DNA of 32,933 nucleotides, from NCBI GenBank assembly GCA_021161835.1, contig JAGGZV010000032.1, positions 1 through 32,933 on the forward strand, read 5' to 3'. This document shows, piece after piece, positions 1-14,140 of this stretch; the stretch's first letter is position 1; every line of letters begins with the position of its first letter. Origin of the DNA: Thermotogae bacterium (GTDB lineage Bacteria > Thermotogota > Thermotogae > UBA12178). The position numbers and the translations under genes are program-made. The notes under the pieces were generated by a model. That model searched no databases, had not been told where the DNA came from, and saw only the letters and a list, made by a program, of their open reading frames with translations.

Positions 1-578
1 GTGGAGGATGTCATTTCCTCGCTGTCAATGCAAAAACAGGAGAAATCATATGGCACTTCAATGGTTTGTCAGAAGAAAACAAAAAGAAATATGGTTTCAA
101 AGATGAACCAGGATATAGGTATTACTTTGAAATGACGCCTGTTATATACAAGGATATGGTAATAGCAGACACATATGGTGCTGGAGTTTTCGCTTTTGAT
201 ATAAAAACAGGAAAAATAATATGGTGGATAGAAGGAGTAAGTGGAGGTACACACAGAGGAGACATGCTCATAAGAGATGGTGTGGTGTATGAATTGGGAA
301 GCTGGTGTGCTTCTGCAATAAAAGCAGAAACAGGAGAAGTGATATGGGACAGAAACATAATGTTTGGTGGAGATGAAAGCTCACCATGCATGGGTAATGG
401 AAAACTGTACATGGGTGAAAGTGCATTTGTAGGAGCTGTGGATATTGTCGACATCGATTATAAAATAGCAAAAACGTCGATCAAAAAGCAGGTGGAGGAA
501 GAGTATGGGCTTTCAAGGTTAAGTAAGATTGAGACGAAAGTATACATATACCTATCTGAATCTGGTGAACTTGCTTGA
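1..578 (+). CDS. PQQ-type beta-propeller protein, 5' end outside window, chimeric-looking C-terminus
   Basis: The reading frame is open from the window edge (codons begin at base 3), so the N-terminus is missing. Three blade-like repeats are visible, each ending in an AxxAKTGEIIW-type motif (near bases 33-60, 190-225 and 310-345), the usual docking signature of PQQ/WD-like propeller blades. These proteins are mostly secreted or periplasmic; a precise function cannot be given. After about base 440 the blade pattern stops in mid-blade. The last ~45 residues, with LSRLSKIETKVYIYLSESGE near the end, instead resemble the first helices of a TrmB-type winged-helix domain. The gene then stops where the -35 box of the next gene begins. 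It may be a broken or rearranged gene. It is AT-rich like the next two genes (19 of 60 bases G+C at 181-240). Confidence 0.6.
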   Translation, partial: GGCHFLAVNAKTGEIIWHFNGLSEENKKKYGFKDEPGYRYYFEMTPVIYKDMVIADTYGAGVFAFDIKTGKIIWWIEGVSGGTHRGDMLIRDGVVYELGSWCASAIKAETGEVIWDRNIMFGGDESSPCMGNGKLYMGESAFVGAVDIVDIDYKIAKTSIKKQVEEEYGLSRLSKIETKVYIYLSESGELA

Positions 579-603
579 CATTGATAGAAGTTTAGTGTAA
601 GAT
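575..603 (+). promoter_or_regulatory. Sigma-70-type promoter of the LacI-family regulator gene
   Basis: TTGACA at 575-580 and TAAGAT at 598-603 are separated by exactly 17 bases. The -35 box is a perfect consensus match and the -10 box differs at two positions. Transcription would start near 610, inside the AACCGGTT operator, about 30 bases before the TTG start of the regulator gene. The -35 box overlaps the stop codon of the preceding gene. Confidence 0.75.
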
Positions 604-608
604 GTATA

Positions 609-622
609 TGGAACCGGTTGCA
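609..622 (+). promoter_or_regulatory. LacI-type operator O1 (autoregulation)
   Basis: TGGAACCGGTTGCA has the form TGNAACCGGTTNCA, a palindrome with a central CG, typical of operators bound by LacI/GalR-family regulators. It lies at the predicted transcription start of the regulator gene, just after the -10 box. A bound repressor would block that promoter, so negative autoregulation is the natural reading. Binding by the adjacent regulator is inferred from position and family. Confidence 0.7.
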
Positions 623-641
623 CACATTGGGGTGAAGGATA

Positions 642-1664
642 TTGAAACTGACCATATCACAGATTGCGAAGCTTGCAGGTGTATCAAAATCTACTGTTTC
701 ACGGGCACTGAATGGAAGCGGCTATGTTTCGGAAAAAACGAAGAGGAAGATACTGGAGATAATCAGGAAATATGATTTTGTACCTGATTCAAAGGCTGTG
801 AGTCTCAGTAAAAGAAGGACTTTTACCGTAGGGTTAATACTTCCTGCAACTTCTGGACCTTTCTACGGTGAAGTTATCAGAGGAGTGGAAGAAGTACTAG
901 CTGTTAAGGGATACTTTACCTTACTGGCCATTGTAGATTCTGGACAGAGTATAGAGCAGGCACGTGCAAGGTATGTTTCGATGATACGTGAAAGAAGGAT
1001 GGATGGAGCGATAATATTCGATCCTACAATAGATTCAAAAACTGTGGAAAGACTTGCTAGGTGTAAAGCACCCATAGTATTTCTTTCAAAGAATCTTCAA
1101 AAATTTGGTATTGACAGTATAAAAGTTGATAACATATCGGGAAGTGTGTCAATGGTGAAACATTTGGTAGAAAAGCATGGTTACAGAAGAATAGCTTTTG
1201 TGAAAGGACCCGAAGTGAGTGATGACAGTATAGAACGTTTTGAAGGTTTTTTGGAAGCGATGCACGAACACGGTTTAGAATGTGATGAATCGCTGGTATT
1301 CTGTTCTGATTTTACCCTTGAAGGGGCACGAAAGATATTTCCACAACTGAAGAAACACCTCAACAAAATAGACGCCGTATTTTGCGCGAACGATGAAATG
1401 GCACTTGGCATTATCGATGAAATGAAAAAACTGGGATTATATCCAGGTAAAGATATCGCTGTTGTAGGGTTCGACGATGCTTTTTGGGCAAGATACATCG
1501 ATCCTCCTCTTACCACTGTACATCAACCAATGTACGAAGTTGGAAAAATAGCCGCTCAAAGAATACTGGAAAGAATCTCCAACCCTACTTTATTCAAAGA
1601 CCCCATAACAATCATTCTCCAAACCAAACTTATTGTCAGACGTTCCTGTGGTTGTAGTCAATGA
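642..1664 (+). CDS. LacI/GalR-family sugar-responsive transcriptional regulator
   Basis: A 340-residue protein of the usual LacI-family length. Residues 2-50 form the helix-turn-helix with LAGVSKSTVSRAL and the hinge helix region. From about residue 60 it is a periplasmic-binding-protein-like sensor domain (VGLILPATSGPFY onward), ending in RRSCGCSQ, a tail common in this family. The start is TTG at 642, preceded by GGGGTG at 629-634. It has its own promoter with an AACCGGTT operator on the start site, and a second operator stands just before the GH94 gene that follows after a 75-base gap. It most likely represses the downstream phosphorylase and glucanase/ABC operon until a sugar ligand binds. 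The effector cannot be read from the sequence. It is strongly AT-rich (16 of 60 bases G+C at 1081-1140). Confidence 0.93.
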   Translation: MKLTISQIAKLAGVSKSTVSRALNGSGYVSEKTKRKILEIIRKYDFVPDSKAVSLSKRRTFTVGLILPATSGPFYGEVIRGVEEVLAVKGYFTLLAIVDSGQSIEQARARYVSMIRERRMDGAIIFDPTIDSKTVERLARCKAPIVFLSKNLQKFGIDSIKVDNISGSVSMVKHLVEKHGYRRIAFVKGPEVSDDSIERFEGFLEAMHEHGLECDESLVFCSDFTLEGARKIFPQLKKHLNKIDAVFCANDEMALGIIDEMKKLGLYPGKDIAVVGFDDAFWARYIDPPLTTVHQPMYEVGKIAAQRILERISNPTLFKDPITIILQTKLIVRRSCGCSQ

Positions 1665-1679
1665 AAAAAACAGATATCT

Positions 1680-1709
1680 TTGAATGTTGTGTTTTTTCGA
1701 TCATATAGG
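1680..1709 (+). promoter_or_regulatory. Candidate promoter of the GH94 operon
   Basis: TTGAAT at 1680-1685 is followed by CATATA at 1702-1707 (16-base spacer), or by TATAGG at 1704-1709 (18-base spacer). The match is moderate, but the position directly upstream of a LacI-type operator and a 75-base intergenic gap support a promoter here. Read-through from the regulator gene is the alternative. Confidence 0.4.
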
Positions 1710-1726
1710 AAACCGGTTCCATATAT
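1703..1726 (+). promoter_or_regulatory. LacI-type operator O2 before the GH94 gene
   Basis: AACCGGTT at 1711-1718 sits at the centre of a longer imperfect palindrome. Of the outer positions, ATATA at 1703-1707 pairs with TATAT at 1722-1726, with two mismatched positions in between. It has the same core as the operator before the regulator gene and lies 22 bases before the GH94 start, at or just after the candidate -10 box. It is the probable control point of the sugar operon. Confidence 0.7.
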
Positions 1727-1739
1727 TGTACAGGGAGTG

Positions 1740-4088
1740 ATGAGAAAAGTGAGGTATTTTGAAACAAAGTATGGATATTTCAAAGAAAATGGTGATTTTG
1801 TTGTAACCACACCTACAACTCCTGCTCCATGGGTACATATTTTGACAAATGGTCGATATGGAGCGGTGTATTCTCAGGCAGGTAGTGGGTATTCGTTTTA
1901 CATTGATGCATCACGTAGTTTGGTGACACGTTGGATACAGGATCTTGTGGAAGACAGGTATGGAAAATACATTTACATGGTTGACGAAGACAGGGACGAA
2001 GTATTTTCTGCTACATTTCAACCGGTTAGAAGGGAAGGTAGGTATGAAACGATTTATTCACCTGGAAAGGTGGTATTTCAAAGTTCTTTTGAAAGGTTGG
2101 ATATAACAACGAGTGTTGTGGTTACAAGAACGTATGATGTTGAGGTAATGAAGTTGGAGATACGGAACAAAACGAAGGATGAAATGCATTTATCAATTTT
2201 TTCGTATTTTGAACTCAACATGGGAACTTCCACCGATGTACACAGAGAATTTCACAAACTTTTCTTTGAAACAACGTTTGTAGCTAATTCGTTGGTAAGT
2301 GAAAAGTACATGTGGACGGCGGGACCAAGGAGCTGGAACAGTTCTTATCCTTTCACGGTTTTTCATTCTTCCACTGAAAAAGTAACGTCCTTTGAAACGG
2401 ACAAAAAGAACTTCATTGGTATGTATGGAGACCCTCGGTTTCCCAGAGCTGTTGAAATGAGAAAGTGTACAGATACTGTTGGACGCAATATAGATGCAGT
2501 GAATGCTTTACACATCAAACTCAATTTAAAACCTTTTTCTAAAGAAACGGTGTATTTCATTTTAGGTATTGCAGAAAGCAGGGAAAAGGCCATTGAAATA
2601 TCTCAAAAATTTCAAAACAAAACTTTCTGTGAATTGCAAATAGAGGAAACGTTGAACTACTGGCGAGAATTCCTGAGCAGATTCAGAACATCTTTACCAG
2701 ATAAAGATATCGAATTTCTTTTGAACAAATGGTTACCGTATCAGGCAATAGGTGGAAGATTGATGGCAAGAACGGCTTACTATCAAATGGGTGGTGCTTT
2801 TGGTTACAGAGATCAACTTCAGGATAGTCTGGCTGCTCTATGGCTTGATCCATCCATAACAAAAAATCAGATACTTCTTCATTCAGAACATCAAAAAAAA
2901 GATGGTACGGTACAGCACTGGTGGTTGCCCTTCAGCAACGAAGCACCATCTGAAAGATGGTCGGATGATCTGCTGTGGTTACCTTTTGTGGTATGCATGT
3001 ACATCGAACATACGGGTGATAAACGAATACTCCTTGAAGAAACAAAGTTTCTTGATGGTGGTAAGGCAAGCATAAAAGAACACTGTTTGAGAAGCATTCA
3101 TTCAGTACTCACCAGTATTTCCAAAAGAGGTGTTCCTCTCATCCTTGATGGTGATTGGAACGATGGATTGAATGGTCTTGGACACAATAAAAAAGGTGAA
3201 AGTTTCTGGTTATGCGAATTCTTGTATTTCATTATCAACAAAGTATTGAATCTGTTTGATTTAACCGAAAAAGAGAAAGATTGGCTCAACAAAACAGCAC
3301 AATCTCTAAAAGAAACATTCAACAAATATGCATGGAATGGTGAATGGTTCAACAGAGCTACATCGGATGCTGGAAATATCCTTGGTGGAAAAGAAGACAA
3401 AAGAATATTCCTCAATCCTCAAACCTGGGCTGTTATTTCAAATATAACTGATCAATCGAAAATGTTCAAAGCTATGGAAAGTTTGAAACAACACCTTATC
3501 ACTGATTACGGTCTTCTCCTGCTATATCCACCTTTCACAGAAGTGAATGAAAATGTAGGTTACATAACAAGATATGCACCTGGTAGTAGAGAAAATGGAG
3601 GTGTCTACACTCATGCAGCTACATGGGTTATGTGGGCAGCATGGATATTGAAAGATTGTGAATTGACCGAAAAAGTATACCAAACACTTTCACCTATCCT
3701 GAGATATTACAAAAACCCCGATACATACATGGCAGAACCCTATGTTACACCAGGAAATTCAGATGGCCCACTATCCCCTATGAAAGGTAGAAGTGGTTGG
3801 ACATGGTACACAGGCTCAGCGAGCTGGTTCTACAATCTGATCATTAGATGCTATCTGGGTATATATCCAATATCTGAAGGTATACTCTTCTCTCCCTGTT
3901 CAAAGAAAAAATGGAGAAAAGCATATATCAACTTCCAAATACGTGATGCAAACTATTCCTTACAAATATTCAATCCCAACGGTAAAGAACTGCATCAATA
4001 TGAAAAGATCATCTTCAACGGAAAGGAAATGGATGGTAATCTCATCCCCTATAACCCCGGGGAAAATCAGGTGGAAATCCTATATTGA
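1740..4088 (+). CDS. GH94 family disaccharide/oligosaccharide phosphorylase
   Basis: About 782 residues, close to cellobiose and chitobiose phosphorylases (~800). GH94 enzymes cleave a beta-glucoside with inorganic phosphate to give a sugar 1-phosphate, in the cytoplasm; no signal peptide is seen. The N-terminal beta-sandwich has the typical NGDFVVTTPTTPAPW start. The (alpha/alpha)6 domain carries DGDWNDGLN, with D475 as the expected general acid. The phosphate-site residues known from Vibrio chitobiose phosphorylase have matches here: H625 in GGVYTHAATW and T691-G692 in WTWYTGSASW. It is therefore probably active. I start it at ATG 1740 (GGGAG at 1733-1737, tight spacing), because the frame upstream contains the operator. 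The stop codon overlaps the next gene's ribosome-binding site. Substrate is uncertain: the GH144-like neighbour favours sophorose or beta-1,2-oligoglucan over cellobiose. The gene is AT-rich, unlike the genes after it. Confidence 0.88.
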   Translation: MRKVRYFETKYGYFKENGDFVVTTPTTPAPWVHILTNGRYGAVYSQAGSGYSFYIDASRSLVTRWIQDLVEDRYGKYIYMVDEDRDEVFSATFQPVRREGRYETIYSPGKVVFQSSFERLDITTSVVVTRTYDVEVMKLEIRNKTKDEMHLSIFSYFELNMGTSTDVHREFHKLFFETTFVANSLVSEKYMWTAGPRSWNSSYPFTVFHSSTEKVTSFETDKKNFIGMYGDPRFPRAVEMRKCTDTVGRNIDAVNALHIKLNLKPFSKETVYFILGIAESREKAIEISQKFQNKTFCELQIEETLNYWREFLSRFRTSLPDKDIEFLLNKWLPYQAIGGRLMARTAYYQMGGAFGYRDQLQDSLAALWLDPSITKNQILLHSEHQKKDGTVQHWWLPFSNEAPSERWSDDLLWLPFVVCMYIEHTGDKRILLEETKFLDGGKASIKEHCLRSIHSVLTSISKRGVPLILDGDWNDGLNGLGHNKKGESFWLCEFLYFIINKVLNLFDLTEKEKDWLNKTAQSLKETFNKYAWNGEWFNRATSDAGNILGGKEDKRIFLNPQTWAVISNITDQSKMFKAMESLKQHLITDYGLLLLYPPFTEVNENVGYITRYAPGSRENGGVYTHAATWVMWAAWILKDCELTEKVYQTLSPILRYYKNPDTYMAEPYVTPGNSDGPLSPMKGRSGWTWYTGSASWFYNLIIRCYLGIYPISEGILFSPCSKKKWRKAYINFQIRDANYSLQIFNPNGKELHQYEKIIFNGKEMDGNLIPYNPGENQVEILY
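2020..2027 (+). promoter_or_regulatory. Possible auxiliary LacI-type operator inside the GH94 gene
   Basis: A third AACCGGTT core lies in the GH94 coding region, 309 bases downstream of the operator before the gene, flanked by TTTC and AGAA. LacI-family regulators often use such secondary sites for DNA looping. It could be a chance 8-base match. Confidence 0.3.
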
Positions 4089-4100
4089 GGAGGTGTTACC

Positions 4101-7100
4101 GTGAGAAAGTCTTTACTGTTTCTCTGTGTTATCCTGCTGGCGGTGTTTTGTACGGCAGCCGCGGTGATAAACGACATGGAAAAGACGGAAGGTTTGAGCA
4201 ACGATAATACCGGTGCAGCTTTCGAAATCACAGATGAGTTTGTATTTTCCGGACAACATTCTGTGAAAGTCATACCTTCGGGCAAAGCCGATGAAACCAA
4301 ACTCGCCTTCCAGATAACGGGAAAGGTGCTGGAACAGTGGGTGGAATCGAATATACTGGAAATCGCCGTTTTCATTCCCGAAGATGCGGAGACGTTCCCC
4401 ACGAAGTATTTCCTTGGCATGGCGGACATAACGGAAGGATGGAAATGGGTGGATGGTGTATTCTCTGAAAGCAAGTCGAAGAAAGGGTGGAACAGCGTAA
4501 CATTTAAACTTTCGCAAAAGATGAAAGACATATCTATAGTTGGCAAGTACATGCTGTACTTCGCGTTCATAGAATTCAAAGACGGCAAGAAAATACCCAT
4601 AAAAGACGTATTCTACGTAGATCACTTCATCGTGTTTCCCAAGGAAGAGGAAAAAGAAAGAATCTACATATTCCCCATGGAAACAAAAGCCGAGATTTCA
4701 AAGTACACAAACGACAACACCGGCGCAACATTCTCCCTGAGCGATGAGTACGTTTCTCAAGGTTTGCACTCTCTGAAAGTAACGCCTAACGGAAAAGCCT
4801 TGGAAACGAAAGTGGCGCTGCCACTCGAAGGTGAGAATGTGGCAAATTGGTCGATTGGTAACAAAGTGATCATGCGCGTCTACATACCCGAATATACCGA
4901 AGTAATCCCCACGATGTACTTCATCGGTATGGCGGATGTGACGGAAAAGTGGAGCTGGGTGGGCGGAGTCTTTGCAGACAAAGGTGAAGTAACCAAAGGC
5001 TGGAATACAGTGGAATTCAGTATAGCAGGAACGATGAAGGATCTCGATCCCGATAGAAAGTACATGGTGTATATCGCGTTTGCCGGTTTCGACACCAAGA
5101 ACAAGAAGATTCCCCTCACATCCCCGTTCTACGTGGATGGTATATATGTGGAGAAAGTCAGAGTTCTGAGTATGGAGGAAAAGATGAAAATGGCGGCCCC
5201 CGAGATCAAAGAGGAAGTTAAGAAAATGCTGGAAATGGGAGATGAGGAACTTCTGGATTACATCCAGCGTAAAACCTTCGAATATTTCTGGAACGAGGCA
5301 AACCCAGCGAATGGGCTTGTACGTGACCGATCACGTCCTGATGCAGCGTGTAGTATAGCCGCCGTTGGATTTGCGCTTGGTGCCATACCCGTGGCCATTG
5401 AAAGAGGGTGGATAAGCTACGATGAAGGATACGAGAGGGTTCTCACAACGCTTAAAACATTCGTGAATGGTCAGGTAGAAGGAAAAAACGGCTTTTTCTA
5501 CCACTTCGTTGATATGGATACTGGCAAGAGAGCAGGTAACTGTGAGCTTTCATCGATAGATACCACCTTACTGGTGGTGGGCGCATTGTTCGCAGGTGAA
5601 TACTTCAAAGGAACCGAAGTGGAAAAGCTGGCAGACACGCTGTACAGAAACGTCAACTGGCAATGGATGCTCGCAGATGATAGCACATTGTACATGGGCT
5701 GGAAACCAGAAGCGGGGTTCCTCAATGCCAAATGGAGCTCATTCAACGAAGGAATACTGGCTTACATACTCGCAATAGGTTCGCCGACTTATCCCATTCC
5801 TGCAGAGTCCTGGGACAAGATAGTGAGACCCGTTCACGATAATTACATCTCGTGTCCCACGGAATCACTCTTCGTATATCAGTACCCGAACGTATGGATC
5901 GATTTCAGGAATAAAGAAGACAAATATGCCAACTATTTCAACAACGCGAAAGTGGCCACACGGTACAACTATCTGTTCTGCGTTGTGAACAGGTTCAAAT
6001 ATGAAACGTACGATCTCGACATCTGGGGATTGAGCGCCTCGGATGGTCCTGCGGGCTACAAACATTACGGCGCTTCCACGGGAAATCACGATGGTACTGT
6101 GGCACCATACGCTCCCATATCCTCGATAGTTTTCACTCCCGATCTGTCGATGAAAGCCATAAGAGAAATGCTGAAAAAATATGGACCCCTTGTATGGGGA
6201 AAATACGGATTCGTGAGCGCGTTCAACGTGGACGCGAACTGGTTCTCCACCGAATTCATAGGAATAGATGAAGGCGATATAATCCTCATGATAGAAAATT
6301 ACAGAAGCGGCCTGATATGGAAAAAAGTCATGCAGAATCGTTACATACAGAAAGCCATGAGAGCCGTTGGTTTCGTTGAAAAGACTTCCGACTATGCGGC
6401 TACGCCGTGGTACATCGAAGAATACAAGAAGAAACTCTCGGCTGCTTCAACGGAGAAAATCGCCCTGGCTCGCAAGGTGGAAAAAATCAAAGTAGATGGA
6501 AAGCTGGATGACTGGAAAGGAATACAATACAACGTGGTTGATGAATCCATGAACGTCCCATCCGCCGGCATCAAGAAGGTCAACAGGAGAACACAGATAC
6601 TGCACAGTCACTTCTATGCGGCATGGAACGATGAATATCTGTATCTGGCAGCGCGGGTTTACGACGAATACATCGTGGTGAACATAAAACCAGACGATTT
6701 GGCAGCATTCTACAGGACAGATTCCATAGAATTCTATCTCGATCCATCGAGAGAGAATCCGAAAGCAGGAATATTCAAACTTGCCGTTCTTCCATTCGAT
6801 ACCGAAGGGAATCCCCAAGCTGTCAGACACGAAGATGCGAATCCGGGACCGATATCCGAAGTTGCACCTGACGTGAAAATAGCATCTTCCAGGACGGAAA
6901 ATGGTTATATCGTGGAAGTCGCCATACCATTCAAATACCTTGGCATCATGCCGAAGCCGGGACTGAAAATTGGATTCTGTCACACCATCCACAATTCCAA
7001 CGTGAGGAACGCAAAGATCGGTGCATACGTTAGAGAAAACATGCTGTCCTGGGTACCGTTGCCGGACATATGGGCATACCCGGAAAAGTGGGGAACATTG

Positions 7101-7115
7101 GAATTTGCGAAGTAA
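4101..7115 (+). CDS. Secreted modular GH144-like beta-1,2-glucanase with tandem N-terminal domains and CBM9-like tail
   Basis: 1004 residues. A Sec signal peptide covers about 1-21 (hydrophobic core LLFLCVILLAVF; the Cys is not in a proper lipobox). Residues ~22-178 and ~190-352 are two similar beta-sandwich repeats sharing NDNTGA, FLGMAD/FIGMAD and KGWN, probably carbohydrate-binding. Residues ~380-760 match the 'glycoamylase' fold (PF10091), with ELSSIDTTLLVVGALFAGEY and WSSFNEGILAYILAIGSPTY. That fold holds the GH144 endo-beta-1,2-glucanases and sophorose-releasing enzymes, and also occurs in cyclic beta-1,2-glucan synthases. Residues ~790-1004 resemble CBM9 (KVDGKLDDW, DSIEFYLDPS, IPFKYLG). 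The GTG start has GAGGAGGTG at 4087-4095, overlapping the GH94 stop. It likely cuts beta-1,2-glucan outside the cell for the ABC importer that follows. Family assignment is from memory of motifs. Base composition is clearly higher in G+C than the gene before it. Confidence 0.85.
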   Translation: MRKSLLFLCVILLAVFCTAAAVINDMEKTEGLSNDNTGAAFEITDEFVFSGQHSVKVIPSGKADETKLAFQITGKVLEQWVESNILEIAVFIPEDAETFPTKYFLGMADITEGWKWVDGVFSESKSKKGWNSVTFKLSQKMKDISIVGKYMLYFAFIEFKDGKKIPIKDVFYVDHFIVFPKEEEKERIYIFPMETKAEISKYTNDNTGATFSLSDEYVSQGLHSLKVTPNGKALETKVALPLEGENVANWSIGNKVIMRVYIPEYTEVIPTMYFIGMADVTEKWSWVGGVFADKGEVTKGWNTVEFSIAGTMKDLDPDRKYMVYIAFAGFDTKNKKIPLTSPFYVDGIYVEKVRVLSMEEKMKMAAPEIKEEVKKMLEMGDEELLDYIQRKTFEYFWNEANPANGLVRDRSRPDAACSIAAVGFALGAIPVAIERGWISYDEGYERVLTTLKTFVNGQVEGKNGFFYHFVDMDTGKRAGNCELSSIDTTLLVVGALFAGEYFKGTEVEKLADTLYRNVNWQWMLADDSTLYMGWKPEAGFLNAKWSSFNEGILAYILAIGSPTYPIPAESWDKIVRPVHDNYISCPTESLFVYQYPNVWIDFRNKEDKYANYFNNAKVATRYNYLFCVVNRFKYETYDLDIWGLSASDGPAGYKHYGASTGNHDGTVAPYAPISSIVFTPDLSMKAIREMLKKYGPLVWGKYGFVSAFNVDANWFSTEFIGIDEGDIILMIENYRSGLIWKKVMQNRYIQKAMRAVGFVEKTSDYAATPWYIEEYKKKLSAASTEKIALARKVEKIKVDGKLDDWKGIQYNVVDESMNVPSAGIKKVNRRTQILHSHFYAAWNDEYLYLAARVYDEYIVVNIKPDDLAAFYRTDSIEFYLDPSRENPKAGIFKLAVLPFDTEGNPQAVRHEDANPGPISEVAPDVKIASSRTENGYIVEVAIPFKYLGIMPKPGLKIGFCHTIHNSNVRNAKIGAYVRENMLSWVPLPDIWAYPEKWGTLEFAK

Positions 7116-7129
7116 GGAGGTGAGGGTGG

Positions 7130-8329
7130 ATGAGAAGAATATCGATAGTTATCACGCTCATTCTGATGATCGCCACGTTGTCATTGAGTGTAAAAACACT
7201 GCGAATCTGGGCGATGGGCGAAGAAGCAAAGAATCTCCACATCATGGCAGAAAAGTTCATGAAAGAAAATCCGGATGTAGAGGTAAAGATACAGGCTATC
7301 CCATGGTCCGCTGCTTATGACAAAATACTCACTGGAATCGCCGGCATGCAACTCCCTGACCTGATACAGATGGGAACAACGTGGATGGCCCCATTTGGCG
7401 CCATGGGTGTGTTCGAAGAGTTGACACCTTACATAAAGAAATCGTTTATAAACAAAGATATGTTCTTCGAAGGTTCGTGGCAGACGGTGACCATGGACGG
7501 CGGAATCTACGGTATACCATGGTACGTTGATGTCAGGGTTATGTACTACAGAAAAGACATCCTGGAAAGCATAGGGTACGATCACGCTCCCCAGACCTGG
7601 AACGAACTATATGAGGTGGCAAAAAAACTGGCAAAACGTGGTGAAAAGATGTATGCGCTGTCGTTGTTGTACACAGGCGTTTTCGGAAACGAATTCATGC
7701 CTTTCGCATGGCAAGCGGGTGGACGCATATTCGATGAGAACGGGAACATACGTGTAACCGATCCAGAATTCGTGGAGGCCATTAGATACTACGCCAGATT
7801 CTTCTGGGAAAAACTCGCACCTGTGGGAGGTGCAAACGTACTACAGGACTTTGCAGCAGGTGTAGTGCCAATATTCTTCTCAGGGCCATGGATGGTGAGT
7901 CTTATTGAAAAACAGACACCACAGATAGCCGGCAAATGGTCGGTAGCTTTGATGCCCAAAAACAAAAAAAGAACTTCTTTTGTTGGAGGGTGCAACTGGG
8001 TGATATTCAATACCTCCAAGCACAAAGAACTGGCATGGAAGTTCATAGAATTCATGACAAAACCGGAGAATCAACTGGAATGGTACAAAATAGTTGCTGC
8101 TCTTCCAGCGGTCAAAAAGGCCTGGGAATATCCCGAACTTGCAAATAATCCCATCATTAAGGTATTCGGTGAACAACTCAAGGATGCGAAGTCACCGCCC
8201 AACATACCAGCATGGGAAGAAATCGCCAACGCCATTTCAAGAAGAGTGGAAGAAGCTATATACAGGAAACGAACCCCTGAGAAGGCTGCTGAAATGCTGA
8301 AGAAAGATATAGAAAAGATCATGAGGTGA
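7130..8329 (+). CDS. Carbohydrate ABC transporter substrate-binding protein (family 1, CUT1)
   Basis: 399 residues with a Sec signal peptide (about 1-20, ISIVITLILMIATLSLS). The mature protein has the SBP_bac_1 pattern: LRIWAMGEEAKNLHIMAEKF, GTTWMAPFGAMG, IYGIPWYVDVRVMYYRKDIL and a C-terminal WKFIEFMTKPENQLEW block. It captures sugars outside the membrane and delivers them to the two permeases that follow. ATG 7130 is preceded by AAGGAGGTGA at 7114-7123, which overlaps the glucanase stop codon, so the two genes are coupled. A strong hairpin terminator starts inside the last codons, so this gene is probably transcribed more than the permease genes. The ligand is inferred from the neighbours as sophoro-oligosaccharides or glucan fragments; nothing in the sequence alone proves this. 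Confidence 0.92.
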   Translation: MRRISIVITLILMIATLSLSVKTLRIWAMGEEAKNLHIMAEKFMKENPDVEVKIQAIPWSAAYDKILTGIAGMQLPDLIQMGTTWMAPFGAMGVFEELTPYIKKSFINKDMFFEGSWQTVTMDGGIYGIPWYVDVRVMYYRKDILESIGYDHAPQTWNELYEVAKKLAKRGEKMYALSLLYTGVFGNEFMPFAWQAGGRIFDENGNIRVTDPEFVEAIRYYARFFWEKLAPVGGANVLQDFAAGVVPIFFSGPWMVSLIEKQTPQIAGKWSVALMPKNKKRTSFVGGCNWVIFNTSKHKELAWKFIEFMTKPENQLEWYKIVAALPAVKKAWEYPELANNPIIKVFGEQLKDAKSPPNIPAWEEIANAISRRVEEAIYRKRTPEKAAEMLKKDIEKIMR

Positions 8330-8356
8330 AGAGCCTGCGGGCTCTTCACCTTTTTT
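8325..8356 (+). terminator. Rho-independent terminator/attenuator inside the sugar ABC operon
   Basis: GGTGAAGAGCC (8325-8335) and GGCTCTTCACC (8340-8350) form a perfect 11-base-pair stem with a TGCG loop, followed by six T (8351-8356). The binding-protein stop codon is inside the left arm. The permease gene begins 17 bases later with its own strong ribosome-binding site. The likely effect is partial termination, giving much binding-protein mRNA and less permease mRNA. Confidence 0.88.
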
Positions 8357-8372
8357 CGAGGAGGATGTCTTC

Positions 8373-9245
8373 ATGAAAACCAACTGGTTCTGGATACTGG
8401 TATTCATTGGACCGGCTCTTGCCCTCCTGCTGATATTTCTGATAATTCCGATATTTGCTTCACTTTTCCTGTGTTTAACGGATTTCAATGTTAGAGCCAT
8501 GGTGAACTGGAGCAACGCAAAATTCGTGGGCTTCAGGAATTTCATCGAGCTGTTCCAGGACGAGCTATTCTGGAAAGCTGTTCTAAACACTTTCTATTGT
8601 CTGGCAGTTGCCATGCCAGTTACCGTGTGCCTGGCCCTCATGAATTCCGTACTTCTCAATAGAGAACAAACAAAACTGAAGACTTTCTTCAAAACAGCAT
8701 TTTTCCTGCCTTTTATCACCAACACGGTTGCCATAGCCGTGGTATGGGCGTGGATACTCAACCCTCACTACGGTGTCCTGAACTGGTTGCTTGGTATTTT
8801 CGGAATAGAGGGACCAAACTGGCTGGGAGACCCGAAATGGGCCATGCCATCCATAATCATGCTCGTGGTATGGAAAGCCGTTGGTTACAACACCATATTG
8901 TTCCTTGCGGGACTCCAAAATATACCCGATTTCCTCTACGAAGCGGCGGAACTCGATGGAGCTTCCTCATGGCAAAAGTTTTGGTACATCACCTTACCAC
9001 TTCTGAAACCAACCACGGTGTTTGTCACCACCATGATGATAATAGGATACCTTCAGTTGTTCGAAGAACCCTATATGCTCACACAGGGCGGTCCCTTGAA
9101 TGCAACGCTTTCCATCGTCCTGTATCTTTACAGACAGGGATTCAAATTTTTCAACTTGGGATACGCATCATCGATAGCCGTGGTTTTATTCCTGATGATA
9201 GCTTCTCTGACCATCTTGAGATTGAAGCTCGGCGGACAGGATTGA
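8373..9245 (+). CDS. Sugar ABC transporter permease, MalF/UgpA-like
   Basis: 290 residues, six predicted membrane segments. The conserved cytoplasmic EAA loop, which contacts the ATPase, is YEAAELDGASSWQKFWYITL followed by PLLKP. ATG 8373 is preceded by GAGGAGG at 8358-8364, directly after the terminator T-run. The gene sits between the binding protein and the second permease, the usual CUT1 order. No ATP-binding subunit is encoded nearby; a shared MalK/MsiK-type ATPase elsewhere in the genome is likely. Confidence 0.92.
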   Translation: MKTNWFWILVFIGPALALLLIFLIIPIFASLFLCLTDFNVRAMVNWSNAKFVGFRNFIELFQDELFWKAVLNTFYCLAVAMPVTVCLALMNSVLLNREQTKLKTFFKTAFFLPFITNTVAIAVVWAWILNPHYGVLNWLLGIFGIEGPNWLGDPKWAMPSIIMLVVWKAVGYNTILFLAGLQNIPDFLYEAAELDGASSWQKFWYITLPLLKPTTVFVTTMMIIGYLQLFEEPYMLTQGGPLNATLSIVLYLYRQGFKFFNLGYASSIAVVLFLMIASLTILRLKLGGQD

Positions 9246-9256
9246 GGTGAGGGAAA

Positions 9257-10084
9257 TTGAGAAAAACATCAGTGTTCAATCAGATAGTGGTTCATACGAT
9301 ACTTCTAATATCATCAGCATGCATGATCGTTCCGTTTGTGTGGATGGTTTCAACATCGCTCAAATATCCCGATGAAATCTTCGTGTTTCCACCAAGATGG
9401 ATACCCAGAAATCCCACGCTCGAGAATTATACTGAGCTATTCAAATCCATGAATTTCGGCCGTCCCTTCTTGAATACCATAATAGTGGCTGGATGCATTA
9501 CCTTCTTTTCCATTCTGATTTCTTCGATGGCCGGTTACGCGTTCGCAAAGTTTCGGTTCAAGGGCAGGAATAGACTATTCTTCATGGTACTGGCCACCCT
9601 GATGGTACCGGGGCAGATGACCTTGATACCCGTCTTCCTGCTCATGAGATATCTTGGACTTCTGAACACTTATACAGGATTGATAGCACCCGGAATAGCC
9701 AGTTCTTTCAACATATTCTTCATGCGTCAATTCATATACACCATTCCGAACGATCTCATAGAGGCGGCGAGAATAGATGGAGCAAAAGAAGGATACATAT
9801 TCTTTAAAATCATTCTTCCTCTTTCAAAGCCCGCAATAACCACGATCGCGATATTTACCTTCACGGGATCATGGAATTCGTTCCTATGGCCTCTCATAAT
9901 AGCCCAGGACGAGCGGATGTATACTTTACCTGTTGCAGTTTCCGTACTGGCGGGTCAATACGTTGAAAACATCGCCATACAGATGGCTGGATCGTGTGTG
10001 GTGATAACCCCTATTCTGGTATTCTTCCTATTCGCCCAACGGCATTTTATAAAAGGTATATCTTTAACAGGTTTGAAAGGATAA
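9257..10084 (+). CDS. Sugar ABC transporter permease, MalG/UgpE-like
   Basis: 275 residues with six predicted membrane segments and the EAA loop IEAARIDGAKEGYIFFKIIL. It pairs with the preceding permease to form the import channel. The start is TTG at 9257, with GAGGTGAGG at 9245-9253 overlapping the previous stop; the next usable start would remove part of the first membrane segment. The protein is of normal family length and ends with FIKGISLTGLKG, a common MalG-type end. Confidence 0.92.
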   Translation: MRKTSVFNQIVVHTILLISSACMIVPFVWMVSTSLKYPDEIFVFPPRWIPRNPTLENYTELFKSMNFGRPFLNTIIVAGCITFFSILISSMAGYAFAKFRFKGRNRLFFMVLATLMVPGQMTLIPVFLLMRYLGLLNTYTGLIAPGIASSFNIFFMRQFIYTIPNDLIEAARIDGAKEGYIFFKIILPLSKPAITTIAIFTFTGSWNSFLWPLIIAQDERMYTLPVAVSVLAGQYVENIAIQMAGSCVVITPILVFFLFAQRHFIKGISLTGLKG

Positions 10085-10202: not shown

Positions 10203-11276
10203 ATGGACGTGGAAAAAGAACTCAAAAGAAAAGCGAGTGGTTTTAAAAAAACGCTTAGAAAGAGAAGGATTCAGGATGTATTTCAAAGAGTGTGTTACAT
10301 ATCGCCTGAGGACATCCTTGTGGTGAACTATCCTCGCTCCAGACCACTGGCTGCTTTCAATCCAGGGGCATCGTTGTTTGAAGATGAGGTTTTCATATTT
10401 CCTCGCCTGGTTTTTGATTACTACACCTACAATTCCTCGATAGGAATGTTCAGTATCGGTGTAAAACAACTACTGGAAAACAGCTTCAAAAGACCGATAA
10501 ACACAAAGATAGTCATATGGCCGGATAAAGCCTGGGAATTTGGGCACGGTTGTGAAGATGCGAGGGTGTGCAGTGTAGGTGAAAAAACATACATACTTTA
10601 TACGGGTTCAAAACATTATGGAAGTTCTGCAAAGTCTGAAAATGAGGATTCAGATGAAATAAAGAAAGAGGTGCTCGTGAAAAAATCGGTTCAGGCTTTC
10701 GCACTGTGGGATGAAAAGAGAGGAACATTTGAAAAGCTGGGCTATTTACGGATTAAAGAAGGAAGCGAGGAATATATTCCCGATTGCAAGGATAGCGCTT
10801 TGCTTGGCGAGAAGAATGGAACTGTCTCCATGCTCTTCAGACCAAGCGTAGAAGGATTCATGGGATGCTGGAAAGGTAAGATGGATTCTTCAGATTTATC
10901 CATCAGCATCGACAGTGTGGGAATCGTCATGGGACCAGAAGAATGGGAGAGTAAGATCGGATGGTCTACCAACGCCGTGGAACTGGAAAATGGAAAATTC
11001 CTTGTGGGCTGGCACGGTGTGATGAAAGATGATTTCTCATACGCCAACGGACTGGCACTTGTGAATGCTGAAGGTGAACTTCTGAAAGTAAGCGACTATC
11101 TTCTTGCGCCGAGAGGGCTCGTCGAATATTACGGTGACAGGGGAGGAGTCATCTTCGGTGATGGGTTGATACTTTACGAAGACCTCGTGATATGGATAGG
11201 TGGGGTGAGTGACTACTGTATGGGTGTTTTCGTAGCGAAACTTGAAAAAATTCTAAAAAACATGAGGGAGGTATGA
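10203..11276 (+). CDS. Divergent GH130-like glycoside phosphorylase/hydrolase
   Basis: 357 residues, no signal peptide, so cytoplasmic. It shows the pattern of the five-bladed GH130 propeller: NPG at 53-55, HGCEDARV around 115-122 (the GxEDPR block, here with Ala for Pro), YILYTG at 130-135, CKDSALL at 195-201, GWSTNAVELENGKFLVGWHG near 253-272 and LLAPRGLVEYYGD near 300-312. GH130 enzymes act on beta-mannosides, many as phosphorylases producing mannose 1-phosphate, some as hydrolases. The match is diffuse, and which substrate it uses is unknown. It has a good ribosome-binding site that may be masked by an upstream inverted repeat, and overlaps the next gene by ATGA. It may belong functionally with the sugar operon before it, but GH130 is not known for beta-1,2-glucan. 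Confidence 0.65.
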   Translation: MDVEKELKRKASGFKKTLRKRRIQDVFQRVCYISPEDILVVNYPRSRPLAAFNPGASLFEDEVFIFPRLVFDYYTYNSSIGMFSIGVKQLLENSFKRPINTKIVIWPDKAWEFGHGCEDARVCSVGEKTYILYTGSKHYGSSAKSENEDSDEIKKEVLVKKSVQAFALWDEKRGTFEKLGYLRIKEGSEEYIPDCKDSALLGEKNGTVSMLFRPSVEGFMGCWKGKMDSSDLSISIDSVGIVMGPEEWESKIGWSTNAVELENGKFLVGWHGVMKDDFSYANGLALVNAEGELLKVSDYLLAPRGLVEYYGDRGGVIFGDGLILYEDLVIWIGGVSDYCMGVFVAKLEKILKNMREV

Positions 11277-12066: not shown

Positions 12067-13776
12067 TCAGCGCTCCAGTATTCTCAAGGTTCGAAGTCTG
12101 TTAATGGTTGCGGAAACCTCGTATATTCGAAAACTCTCTATATTCGGTGGAATAGGGCCATCGAAGAAGATATCGATGGTGTTTGAAATCATCAACTTCT
12201 GCAGCTCATCGAGTATCTCTTTCATGCTCTTCACACCATCTATTATTCCACGACGCAAACAGTACGTTATGGCGTTTCCAACTCCCAGGATCTGCCAGTC
12301 GCTTATGAAGGTTTCAACGGCGGAAAGATCTATTTTATTCCTGCCAAGGGTCAGAAATCTCCCTTCCGCACTTTTCAAATATTCTTCTTTTTTACCCCTG
12401 GATGGATCTATACTCGCGGGATCAGGTACCCTGGGATCCGGTAAGCGGAAAGGAGAGGGAACATCTTTTCTACGCTTCGTCACATACTCACATGCTATCT
12501 TTTTCGCCTGCTCGGTTACATCGCGTGGTTTGAAAGAGTCCATCATTATAACGATGTCGGCCACATCGAGATAATCGCCAGAACCACCTATGACTATTAT
12601 GAAAGAAAAACCACGATCCCGCATCTCTTCCACCCTGTCTATAAGAGGAACGATGGGTTCACATCTTCTGGGTATGAGTTGTTGCATCCTGGCATCCCTT
12701 ATCATGAAATTCGTGGCAGATGTGTCCTCATCTATTAAAAACACTTCAACACCACTTTCCACAGCTTCCACTATGTTCGCTGCCATCGAGGTGGAACCGG
12801 AAGCATCTTCTGTATCGAACCTGCGGGTGTCCAGACCAGCTGGAAGATTCGTGATAAAAGAAGATATATCAACTCTGGTTATTTTGCGACCATCCTCTGA
12901 CCTTATCTTGAAAGCGGTGGGGTCGGTTATCACGTACTCCCTGCCATCCCCTTCCACATGATCGTATATTCCCGCCTGCATAGCCTCCAGCAGTGTGGTC
13001 TTACCATGATAACCTCCTCCGGTTATCACCGTTATTCCCTTTCTCACCCCCATACCAGTTATTCTCTTTCCGCCCGGAAGTTCTATTTCCACTCTCAAAG
13101 ATTCGGGAGATTCGAAAGGAACCGCCCTACTTCTATCCATGGGACGTGGATCCACGCCTGAACGTCTTGGAAGTATCGAACCGTCGGCGATGAATGATAT
13201 CAATCCCATATTGTGAAGCATGGTCCTGATGTGTCTTTGATCGTCCTTCAATCTCACAGCTTTTTCCACAAGCCGTGGATCGTACATCAAAATCAATACA
13301 CCGTTTTCAACGATTTTCTTGAGATCCTGTGAGAACATCTCCCACGCCGCTTCGGCATCTATTGTTCGACCACGCGCCGGTAATCCAAAAAATAATCTCA
13401 ATTCCACTACATCATCTTTCAACCTCACACACGTTCGTTCCAGCACCTCTTGGCCGGGACGTGGAAAACCTATCTTTCCACTGTTTCCACTTCCCCTGTT
13501 TTTGGAAACTTTCTGACAGATCCTCCATACGTTCCTCGCAAGGGTATCCTCAACGGCCACGCGTCTGTGTGGTTCACTGTAGAAAGCTGTATCCAGAATG
13601 TTGGAGATGATTACCCTGATCTGGGAAGGTGTGGCAAAGGGATCACCCTGTACTCTGTCTATCGCCACACCATAATTTTCGAAAGCAAAGGAACGCCTGG
13701 AGAGGATTTTGTAGGTTTTGTAACCCTTTTTATGTATGGAATTTAAAAGGATCTTCAACTTTTTCGATGATTCCAT
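12067..13776 (-). CDS. ABC-class P-loop ATPase, PF09818/MRB1590 type
   Basis: About 569 residues. The N-terminal part (NSIHKKGYKTYKILSRRSF, DRVQGDPFATPSQIRVII) is the conserved family-specific nucleic-acid-binding region. The ATPase core has Walker A GGGYHGKTTLLEAM (~253-266), a signature-like ASGSTSMAANIVEA (~325-338) and Walker B VEVFLIDEDTSATN (~343-356). The family is widespread in bacteria; its trypanosome relative MRB1590 takes part in mitochondrial RNA editing, but the bacterial function is unknown. I choose ATG 13776, with GAGGTGA eight bases upstream, over GTG 13788, whose spacing is too short. It overlaps the end of the VanZ-like gene by 47 bases. It is the last gene of the long - strand unit. 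Confidence 0.9.
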   Translation of the reverse strand: MESSKKLKILLNSIHKKGYKTYKILSRRSFAFENYGVAIDRVQGDPFATPSQIRVIISNILDTAFYSEPHRRVAVEDTLARNVWRICQKVSKNRGSGNSGKIGFPRPGQEVLERTCVRLKDDVVELRLFFGLPARGRTIDAEAAWEMFSQDLKKIVENGVLILMYDPRLVEKAVRLKDDQRHIRTMLHNMGLISFIADGSILPRRSGVDPRPMDRSRAVPFESPESLRVEIELPGGKRITGMGVRKGITVITGGGYHGKTTLLEAMQAGIYDHVEGDGREYVITDPTAFKIRSEDGRKITRVDISSFITNLPAGLDTRRFDTEDASGSTSMAANIVEAVESGVEVFLIDEDTSATNFMIRDARMQQLIPRRCEPIVPLIDRVEEMRDRGFSFIIVIGGSGDYLDVADIVIMMDSFKPRDVTEQAKKIACEYVTKRRKDVPSPFRLPDPRVPDPASIDPSRGKKEEYLKSAEGRFLTLGRNKIDLSAVETFISDWQILGVGNAITYCLRRGIIDGVKSMKEILDELQKLMISNTIDIFFDGPIPPNIESFRIYEVSATINRLRTLRILER

Positions 13777-14140
13777 CTTTTGCTTCACCTCGTGCGGAAA
13801 GGCTTTCTCGCATCCTTCTTCTCCTCCTGAAGTGTATCAAACCCACTATCAGGGATGCCATCCCTATACCCAGCATATTGGAAAGCAAATCGAAGATGTT
13901 GGAATCGCGTGTAGGAACATACTTCTGAATCAGCTCCAGAATGCTGGATAGACCAGCAACCCATAAAACCGCATACCAGCGAAAAGCATAAATGCCCAGA
14001 ATCGTCATAAAAAAGTAAAAACCGGCATGAGCCAGCTTATCCTCACCAACGAAGTCATCGAGTTGTACATTTTGAGAGAATGAAGTGTATACAGCGACCA
14101 CAGTAAGAAAAATGAACAAGATCCTCATGAGCACTTTCAT
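13730..14140 (-). CDS. VanZ-like small membrane protein
   Basis: 136 residues with about four membrane segments and the VanZ-like pattern DKLAHAGFYFFMTILG, followed by SSILELIQKYVPTRDSNIFDLLSNMLGIGMA. It ends in an Arg-rich cytoplasmic tail (HFRRRRRMRE). VanZ-family proteins lie in the cell membrane and are loosely linked to glycopeptide resistance and envelope functions; no enzymatic activity is established. The start overlaps the penicillin-binding protein stop by ATGA, so the two are translationally coupled, which fits an envelope role. The 3' end overlaps the ATPase gene. Confidence 0.8.
   Translation of the reverse strand: MKVLMRILFIFLTVVAVYTSFSQNVQLDDFVGEDKLAHAGFYFFMTILGIYAFRWYAVLWVAGLSSILELIQKYVPTRDSNIFDLLSNMLGIGMASLIVGLIHFRRRRRMRESLSARGEAKDGIIEKVEDPFKFHT

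What the first reader, a model, noticed from the sequence alone, without database searches (positions are those of the whole stretch)
1740..10084. Candidate beta-1,2-glucan utilisation locus built from GH144-like glucanase, ABC importer and GH94 phosphorylase
A secreted protein with the glycoamylase/GH144 fold, a CUT1 sugar importer and a GH94 phosphorylase are adjacent, co-directed and coupled by overlapping stop codons and ribosome-binding sites. GH144 enzymes characterised so far cut beta-1,2-glucan. The same fold occurs together with a GH94 domain in cyclic beta-1,2-glucan synthases. Listeria uses ABC import plus a GH94 beta-1,2-oligoglucan phosphorylase. An outside-cut, import, phosphorolysis pathway in a probably thermophilic Thermotogota member would be new to my knowledge. 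The order of steps is inferred.
Basis: partly seen in the sequence, partly recalled or inferred. Interest (0 to 1): 0.75.

Follow-up and report, generated by a model that had tools for sequence, protein, structure and literature searches.

The report
Heat-loving bacteria's beta-1,2-glucan eating operon
A six-gene operon, kept in the same order across several families of the bacterial phylum Thermotogota, most likely lets these bacteria cut the rare polymer beta-1,2-glucan outside the cell, import the pieces and split them with phosphate; a similar gene set was already proposed in Ignavibacterium, so this is a well-supported new member of a known kind.

Summary
Window 642-10084 encodes, in order and on one strand, a LacI-type regulator, a GH94, a secreted GH144 (tandem CBM-like modules, catalytic domain, CBM9), a sugar-binding protein and two permeases. 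The GH144 best matches the characterised GH144 XcSGL and keeps all clan-defining and proposed catalytic residues. The binding protein's best solved match is Lin1841, the Listeria beta-1,2-glucooligosaccharide binder. [quoted passage not shown] Three parts independently point to beta-1,2-glucan. The set recurs in the same order in about 13 of 103 Thermotogota genomes, with LacI-type operators and a hairpin between binding protein and permease; the order also recurs in Ignavibacteriota and relatives. Corrections: the GH94 is not of the Listeria type (no Ndom1; overall architecture like the dimeric disaccharide phosphorylases), so whether it takes sophorose or only longer chains is open. The same three-part pathway was already proposed for Ignavibacterium album (Kobayashi 2022, PMC8861115). 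I found no report of it in Thermotogota. Nothing was assayed. Verdict: interpretation supported; new member of a known kind, moderate interest. It gives heat-stable enzymes and culturable hosts (probably Kosmotoga pacifica) for a direct test.

The parts
575..603 (+). promoter-like TTGACA-17-TAAGAT in front of the regulator gene
   Evidence: 10 of 12 matches; such matches are no more frequent than in shuffles overall, so only suggestive
609..622 (+). LacI-type operator TGGAACCGGTTGCA, just downstream of the promoter-like site
   Evidence: AACCGGTT-core site at the same position in L032 and L033
642..1664 (+). LacI-family transcriptional regulator
   Evidence: PF00356 4e-17, PF13377 1e-30; orthologues first in the cassette in the other complete copies
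1708..1721 (+). second LacI-type operator GGAAACCGGTTCCA, in front of the GH94 gene
   Evidence: equivalent site in the LacI-GH94 gap of all other copies examined
1740..4088 (+). [quoted passage not shown]
   Evidence: PDB match 8rf9 423 bits versus CBP 311; catalytic and phosphate residues kept in A3; tree; fold
4101..7115 (+). secreted modular GH144 endo-beta-1,2-glucanase candidate (1004 aa)
   Evidence: PF10091 2e-64; XcSGL 275 bits; key residues E482, D487, E550, F591, Y656
4155..5195 (+). two tandem N-terminal beta-sandwich modules (CBM-like, no Pfam family)
   Evidence: AlphaFold pLDDT 91; Foldseek best match tandem CBM22 4xup, E 1.7e-13
5250..6380 (+). GH144 catalytic (alpha/alpha)6 domain
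6573..7103 (+). C-terminal CBM9 module
   Evidence: PF06452 4e-16
7130..8329 (+). solute-binding protein of a CUT1 importer, Lin1841-like (beta-1,2-glucooligosaccharide binder type)
   Evidence: best PDB match Lin1841, 315 bits alone and 393 as profile; next 250 and 321
8324..8351 (+). GC-rich hairpin followed by T-run between SBP and first permease, likely partial terminator setting SBP above permease levels
   Evidence: a hairpin in this gap in all copies with a gap
8373..9245 (+). CUT1 permease (MalF type)
   Evidence: PF00528 3e-18
9257..10084 (+). CUT1 permease (MalG type)
   Evidence: PF00528 8e-21

Best explanation
This is a LacI-controlled operon for using beta-1,2-glucan. A secreted GH144 enzyme, held on its substrate by tandem CBM-like modules and a CBM9, cuts linear (possibly also cyclic) beta-1,2-glucan outside the cytoplasm into sophoro-oligosaccharides. 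A Lin1841-type binding protein and two CUT1 permeases, using a shared MalK-type ATPase encoded elsewhere, import them. The cytosolic GH94 phosphorolyses them from the non-reducing end to glucose 1-phosphate and a shorter chain. Sophorose or glucose is left for GH94 itself or for unlinked beta-glucosidases. A repressor acting at AACCGGTT operators before lacI and before GH94 turns the operon on when a beta-1,2-sugar is present. Shown: gene content, order, conservation, conserved catalytic residues, operators, hairpin. Inferred: substrate, localisation, order of steps, inducer.
For: GH144: PF10091; best PDB match XcSGL, a GH144 beta-1,2-glucanase (PMC12102758); E239/F286/Y367, which define the clan, and the base candidate map to E550/F591/Y656/D487, invariant in 13 orthologues. 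SBP: top PDB match Lin1841 by 65-72 bits. GH94: best match is the CGS phosphorylase domain; residues for glucose 1-phosphate and phosphate kept (against LpSOGP residues). Gene order lacI-GH94-GH144-SBP-permease-permease conserved in Thermotogota families f1, f7, f8 and f11. Stand-alone CGS-like GH94 genes in other phyla have a GH144 within about 10 kb in 14 of 24 loci, against 1 of 55 for CGS loci (Fisher p 2e-8), and a Lin1841-like SBP in 7 of 24 against 0 of 55, often in the same order after a LacI gene. Operators and hairpin conserved. Five MalK-type ATPases elsewhere in the genome.
Against: No assay. The window-type GH94 lies on a long branch and is only about 40% identical to the GH94 in f8 and Kosmotoga-type copies, so its specificity could have drifted. 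It lacks the Ndom1/GP1 domain present in both known beta-1,2-active GH94 types. The ligand-contact residues of the SBP could not be checked (source paper not held). Foldseek places the GH94 model nearest to cellobiose and chitobiose phosphorylases overall, though the model has only pLDDT 78.5.
Confidence: 0.83

Rival explanations
1. The operon is for cello-oligosaccharides: GH94 is a cellobiose phosphorylase and the importer a cellodextrin importer, while the PF10091 protein is an accessory or off-target glucanase.
For: Overall GH94 fold nearest to cellobiose phosphorylase (TM 0.84); CBM9 and CBM22-like modules are often found on xylan- or cellulose-acting enzymes (family knowledge).
Against: Sequence score favours CGS over CBP (423 vs 311 bits). 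True Thermotogota CBPs form a separate clade with C. thermocellum CBP (support 100), and one cassette genome, G090, carries both types. The SBP is Lin1841-like, not cellobiose-binding-like. GH144 catalytic residues complete.
Confidence: 0.07
2. The polymer is a different beta-glucan or a substituted cyclic glucan (e.g. anionic cyclic beta-1,2-glucans or mixed-linkage periplasmic glucans), so the operon uses beta-1,2-linked material but not plain linear glucan.
For: Natural beta-1,2-glucans are often cyclic or substituted (review PMC11842490); GH2 or esterase genes sit beside some cassette relatives (L042, L038).
Against: Neither accessory gene is in the window; nothing here separates linear from cyclic.
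Confidence: 0.07
3. The genes recycle the cell's own cyclic or linear glucan rather than scavenging a foreign polymer.
For: GH94 and PF10091-type folds also occur within cyclic glucan synthase.
Against: Only one PF10091 and one GH94 gene in the genome, both in this cassette, so no cyclic glucan synthase was found; importer and LacI control fit catabolism. Genome 86% complete.
Confidence: 0.03

Closest known systems
Ignavibacterium album IALB_1177-1187 beta-1,2-glucan cluster (Kobayashi et al. 2022, PMC8861115)
   Same: GH144 enzymes, a stand-alone CGS-type GH94 and a Lin1841-type SBP with ABC importer; same scheme proposed there. Related Ignavibacteriota loci found here have the same order lacI-GH94-...-GH144-SBP-permease-permease.
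   Different: The window has one GH144 with CBM-like modules and CBM9; no GH35 glucosyltransferase and no second GH144 in the cassette; no TonB uptake step needed in the scheme.
Listeria innocua lin1838-lin1843 cluster (Lin1839 SOGP, Lin1840 GH3, Lin1841 SBP)
   Same: LacI regulator, Lin1841-type SBP, two permeases, a GH94 (PMC3960220).
   Different: Listeria GH94 has the extra Ndom1 of about 250 aa; Listeria has a GH3 beta-glucosidase and no secreted GH144 in the cluster as described.
XcSGL (XCC2207), GH144 beta-1,2-glucanase of Xanthomonas campestris
   Same: Best match of the catalytic domain (275 bits); clan-defining and base-candidate residues identical, and I453 kept.
   Different: The window protein adds two N-terminal modules and a CBM9; activity unknown.
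[quoted passage not shown]
   Same: Best sequence match of the window GH94.
   Different: No GT84, no GH189 cyclase domain, no GP1 subdomain; tree separates CGS domains from the stand-alone clade.
Streptomyces griseus SGR_2423-2427 (PMC12369401)
   Same: Lin1841-type importer next to a beta-1,2-glucanase.
   Different: Uses GH193 and a GH1 beta-1,2-glucosidase, no GH94.

Membership tests
GH144 (clan GH-S beta-1,2-glucanases) | sequence similarity to characterised GH144 above that to GH162/189/192-194 | tested here: met
   PDB matches: XcSGL 275 bits, CpSGL 176, BDI_3064 209; PgSGL3 (GH194) 48; no GH189, GH192 or GH162 structure listed at E 0.001
GH144 (clan GH-S beta-1,2-glucanases) | clan-defining E239, F286, Y367 of XcSGL and base candidate (CpSGL E142 position) | tested here: met
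   E550, F591, Y656, D487, invariant in 13 orthologues
GH144 (clan GH-S beta-1,2-glucanases) | endo-hydrolysis of beta-1,2-glucan | not testable with these tools
   needs purified enzyme
GH94 phosphorylases | catalytic DWND aspartate and glucose 1-phosphate/phosphate residues | tested here: met
   R358, D359, W474, D476, E619, Y624, H626 (A3 numbering) invariant in A3, matched by motif to LpSOGP R630, D631, W758, D760, E917, Y922, H924
[quoted passage not shown]
   protein is about 783 aa with one supersandwich domain; LpSOGP not among sequence matches at E 0.001 and only TM 0.70 against 0.84 for CBP
CGS-type stand-alone GH94 (IALB_1177 kind) | GH94 closer to CGS domains than to CBP, without GT84 and cyclase | tested here: met
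   direct comparison with IALB_1177 itself not made
Lin1841-type beta-1,2-glucooligosaccharide binding protein | closest sequence match is Lin1841 | tested here: met
   top PDB match by a clear margin
Lin1841-type beta-1,2-glucooligosaccharide binding protein | ligand-contact residues and affinity for Sop3-5 | not testable with these tools
   structure paper not held; binding assay needed
cellobiose phosphorylase | falls in the CBP clade | tested here: not met
   CBP clade (C. thermocellum and Thermotoga-type) separated from it with support 100

The most novel reading that the evidence does not exclude
The stand-alone GH94 clade that sits beside GH144 and Lin1841-type importers in Thermotogota, Ignavibacteriota, Neomarinimicrobiota and others is an uncharacterised GH94 specificity: a beta-1,2-oligoglucan phosphorylase without Ndom1, with its pocket formed by a dimer as in cellobiose phosphorylase, which may also split sophorose itself (a sophorose phosphorylase; the term occurs in no held paper), so that one heat-stable enzyme finishes the pathway.
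Probability: 0.3. Interest if true: 0.6.

Novelty: new member of a known kind. Interest (0 to 1): 0.42.

Why it matters
Beta-1,2-glucans are bacterial symbiosis, virulence and osmoregulation polymers, and few organisms are known to feed on them. The cassette would put dedicated consumers into a deep-branching, largely thermophilic phylum and name culturable hosts for a growth test. It would also supply heat-stable glucanase and phosphorylase: a review states that only two SOGPs were known and asks for more thermostable ones (PMC8140972). It suggests that several Thermotogota GH94 genes liable to be named cellobiose phosphorylase are really beta-1,2-specific.

Tried and rejected
Idea that GH94 must finish sophorose because the genome lacks GH1 and GH3: weakened, since the other 17 genomes tested, all with the cassette or its binding protein, have GH1, GH3 or both elsewhere and this genome is only 86% complete. 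Idea that two GH94 lineages were swapped into one cassette: not shown; the tree puts them apart but holding them together is not rejected (p-AU 0.17). GH130 at 10203 as a seventh gene: not supported; 118-nt gap, not seen in other copies, weak similarity to mannobiose phosphorylases only. Wider regulon: only the two cassette sites match the operator consensus exactly (it was built from them); one-mismatch sites are near the number for the reversed control pattern. Lin1841 ligand-residue check: paper not held.

Full report
What is there. On the plus strand of the window lie six genes in a row: LacI-type regulator (642-1664), GH94 (1740-4088), a 1004-aa secreted protein with a PF10091 domain (4101-7115), a sugar-binding protein (7130-8329) and two CUT1 permeases (8373-9245, 9257-10084). 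At three of the four junctions from GH94 onward the stop codon abuts or lies inside a strong ribosome-binding site. At the other, SBP to permease, there is a 12-bp GC-rich hairpin with a T-run.

What the parts are. The PF10091 domain (2e-64) matches, best of all solved structures, XcSGL of Xanthomonas (275 bits), then other GH144 structures; PgSGL3 of GH194 is far behind at 48 bits. Nakajima et al. 2025 (PMC12102758) class XcSGL as GH144 and give E239, F286 and Y367 as the residues that define the clan, with the CpSGL E142 position as the best general-base candidate. Through the printed alignment these are E550, F591, Y656 and D487 in the window protein, invariant in 13 orthologues. The N-terminus reads as a cleavable signal peptide by eye. 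Residues 19-365 fold confidently (pLDDT 91) into two beta-sandwich modules whose best structural match is the tandem CBM22 of a xylanase; no Pfam family covers them. A CBM9 ends the protein.

The binding protein's best solved match is Lin1841 of Listeria innocua, whether it is searched alone (315 bits, next 250) or as a profile of ten orthologues (393, next 321). Lin1841 is the sophoro-oligosaccharide binder of the SOGP cluster (PMC12369401). No ATPase gene is in the cassette, but five MalK-type ATPases lie elsewhere in the genome, the usual sharing for CUT1 importers.

The GH94 has no visible signal peptide. It keeps the residues that bind glucose 1-phosphate and phosphate and the catalytic aspartate. 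[quoted passage not shown] It lacks the N-terminal Ndom1 that marks Listeria-type SOGP, has no sequence match to LpSOGP at E 0.001, and its model resembles the dimeric disaccharide phosphorylases more (TM 0.84) than LpSOGP (0.70) (model pLDDT 78.5). So it is not an SOGP of the known kind.

Phylogeny of GH94. Cellobiose phosphorylases (C. thermocellum and Thermotoga-type) and CGS domains each form a fully supported group. The cassette GH94s lie in a third set with stand-alone GH94s from many phyla (support 93 for that set). The window type sits on a long branch (1.09) inside it. The GH94 of the f8 and Kosmotoga-type copies forms another branch; one common origin for the two cassette types is not rejected (p-AU 0.17).

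Conservation. In 103 Thermotogota genomes, 34 have PF10091. Neighbourhoods of 28 loci show the order lacI-GH94-GH144-SBP-permease-permease in families f1, f7, f8 and f11, about 13 genomes, some cut by contig ends. GH144 identity to the window is 57-73%, SBP 54-80%, GH94 39-68%. Contig length 2,169,170 makes G021 almost certainly Kosmotoga pacifica (PMC5217533). Three f8 genomes (G046, G047, G049) keep GH94 beside the SBP without GH144.

Outside the phylum. A scan of one genome per species with the GH94 profile returned stand-alone genes and CGS fusions. GH144 lies in the locus for 14 of 24 stand-alone GH94s and 1 of 55 CGS loci; Lin1841-like SBPs in 7 of 24 and 0 of 55 (flanks differ in length, so the p-values are rough). 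Several loci from Ignavibacteriota, Chlorobiota and Neomarinimicrobiota have the order (lacI)-GH94-...-GH144-SBP-permease-permease.

Regulation. LacI-type palindromes with core AACCGGTT lie before lacI (609-622) and before GH94 (1708-1721). The lacI-GH94 gap of the other copies holds the same kind of site (AACCGGTT, or CTTAACCG[AC]TTAAG in f8). A hairpin between SBP and the first permease is present in all copies with a gap there, as expected if binding protein is made in excess. This is good sequence evidence for one regulated unit.

Mechanism. Best reading: extracellular endo-cleavage of beta-1,2-glucan, import of sophoro-oligosaccharides, cytosolic phosphorolysis to glucose 1-phosphate, LacI repression relieved by a beta-1,2-sugar. 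Substrate, place and order are inferred. What happens to sophorose is open: the window's genome shows no GH1 or GH3, but it is 86% complete and the other 17 genomes tested, all with the cassette or its binding protein, have one or both.

Precedent and novelty. Kobayashi et al. 2022 (PMC8861115) described in Ignavibacterium album GH144 enzymes, a CGS-type GH94 (IALB_1177) and a Lin1841-type SBP (IALB_1187), and drew the same pathway. Listeria (PMC3960220) and Streptomyces griseus (PMC12369401) have related clusters. No held paper found reports it for Thermotogota. I file this as a new member of a known kind. The part that could become more is the GH94 clade, of which I found no characterised stand-alone member.

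Noticed in passing
L042:13884-15932 (permease end 13870); L063:13843-15936; L089:12384-14447: A GH2-family gene sits inside or directly after the beta-1,2-glucan cassette in a probable Kosmotoga pacifica, an Ignavibacteriales MAG and a Chlorobiota MAG; a candidate uncharacterised beta-1,2-linkage GH2.
   Followed up: partly
L048-L059 (e.g. L051:625-10571): A different Thermotogota cluster: two tandem short (about 400 aa) GH144-like genes, two sets of permeases, a DUF5696 protein and an NHL/Yip1 membrane protein, with a stand-alone GH94 nearby. The catalytic E/D/E/F positions are kept in all full-length copies but the Y656 position is often F or L.
   Followed up: partly
L045, L046, L047 (family f6): Window-type GH94 and a 590-620 aa GH144 occur with an unrelated SBP and permeases (about 25% and 34-40% identity); the importer seems to have been replaced.
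   Followed up: no
window 10203-11276: GH130 phosphorylase gene 118 nt downstream of the last permease, co-directed, only weakly similar to beta-1,2-mannobiose phosphorylases; specificity unknown.
   Followed up: partly
G046, G047, G049: GH94 directly beside the Lin1841-like SBP but no PF10091 gene in the genome: an apparent scavenger form without the glucanase.
   Followed up: partly
L072:7920-12559: A Bacillota MAG has a GH144 57% identical to the window's next to a stand-alone GH94; likely horizontal transfer.
   Followed up: no
L038:13622-14470: Secreted putative esterase just after the cassette in one f8 genome; could remove acyl substituents from glucans.
   Followed up: no
window 12067-13788: ABC-class ATPase family protein (PF09818/PF20446/PF21117), convergent to the operon.
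   Followed up: no
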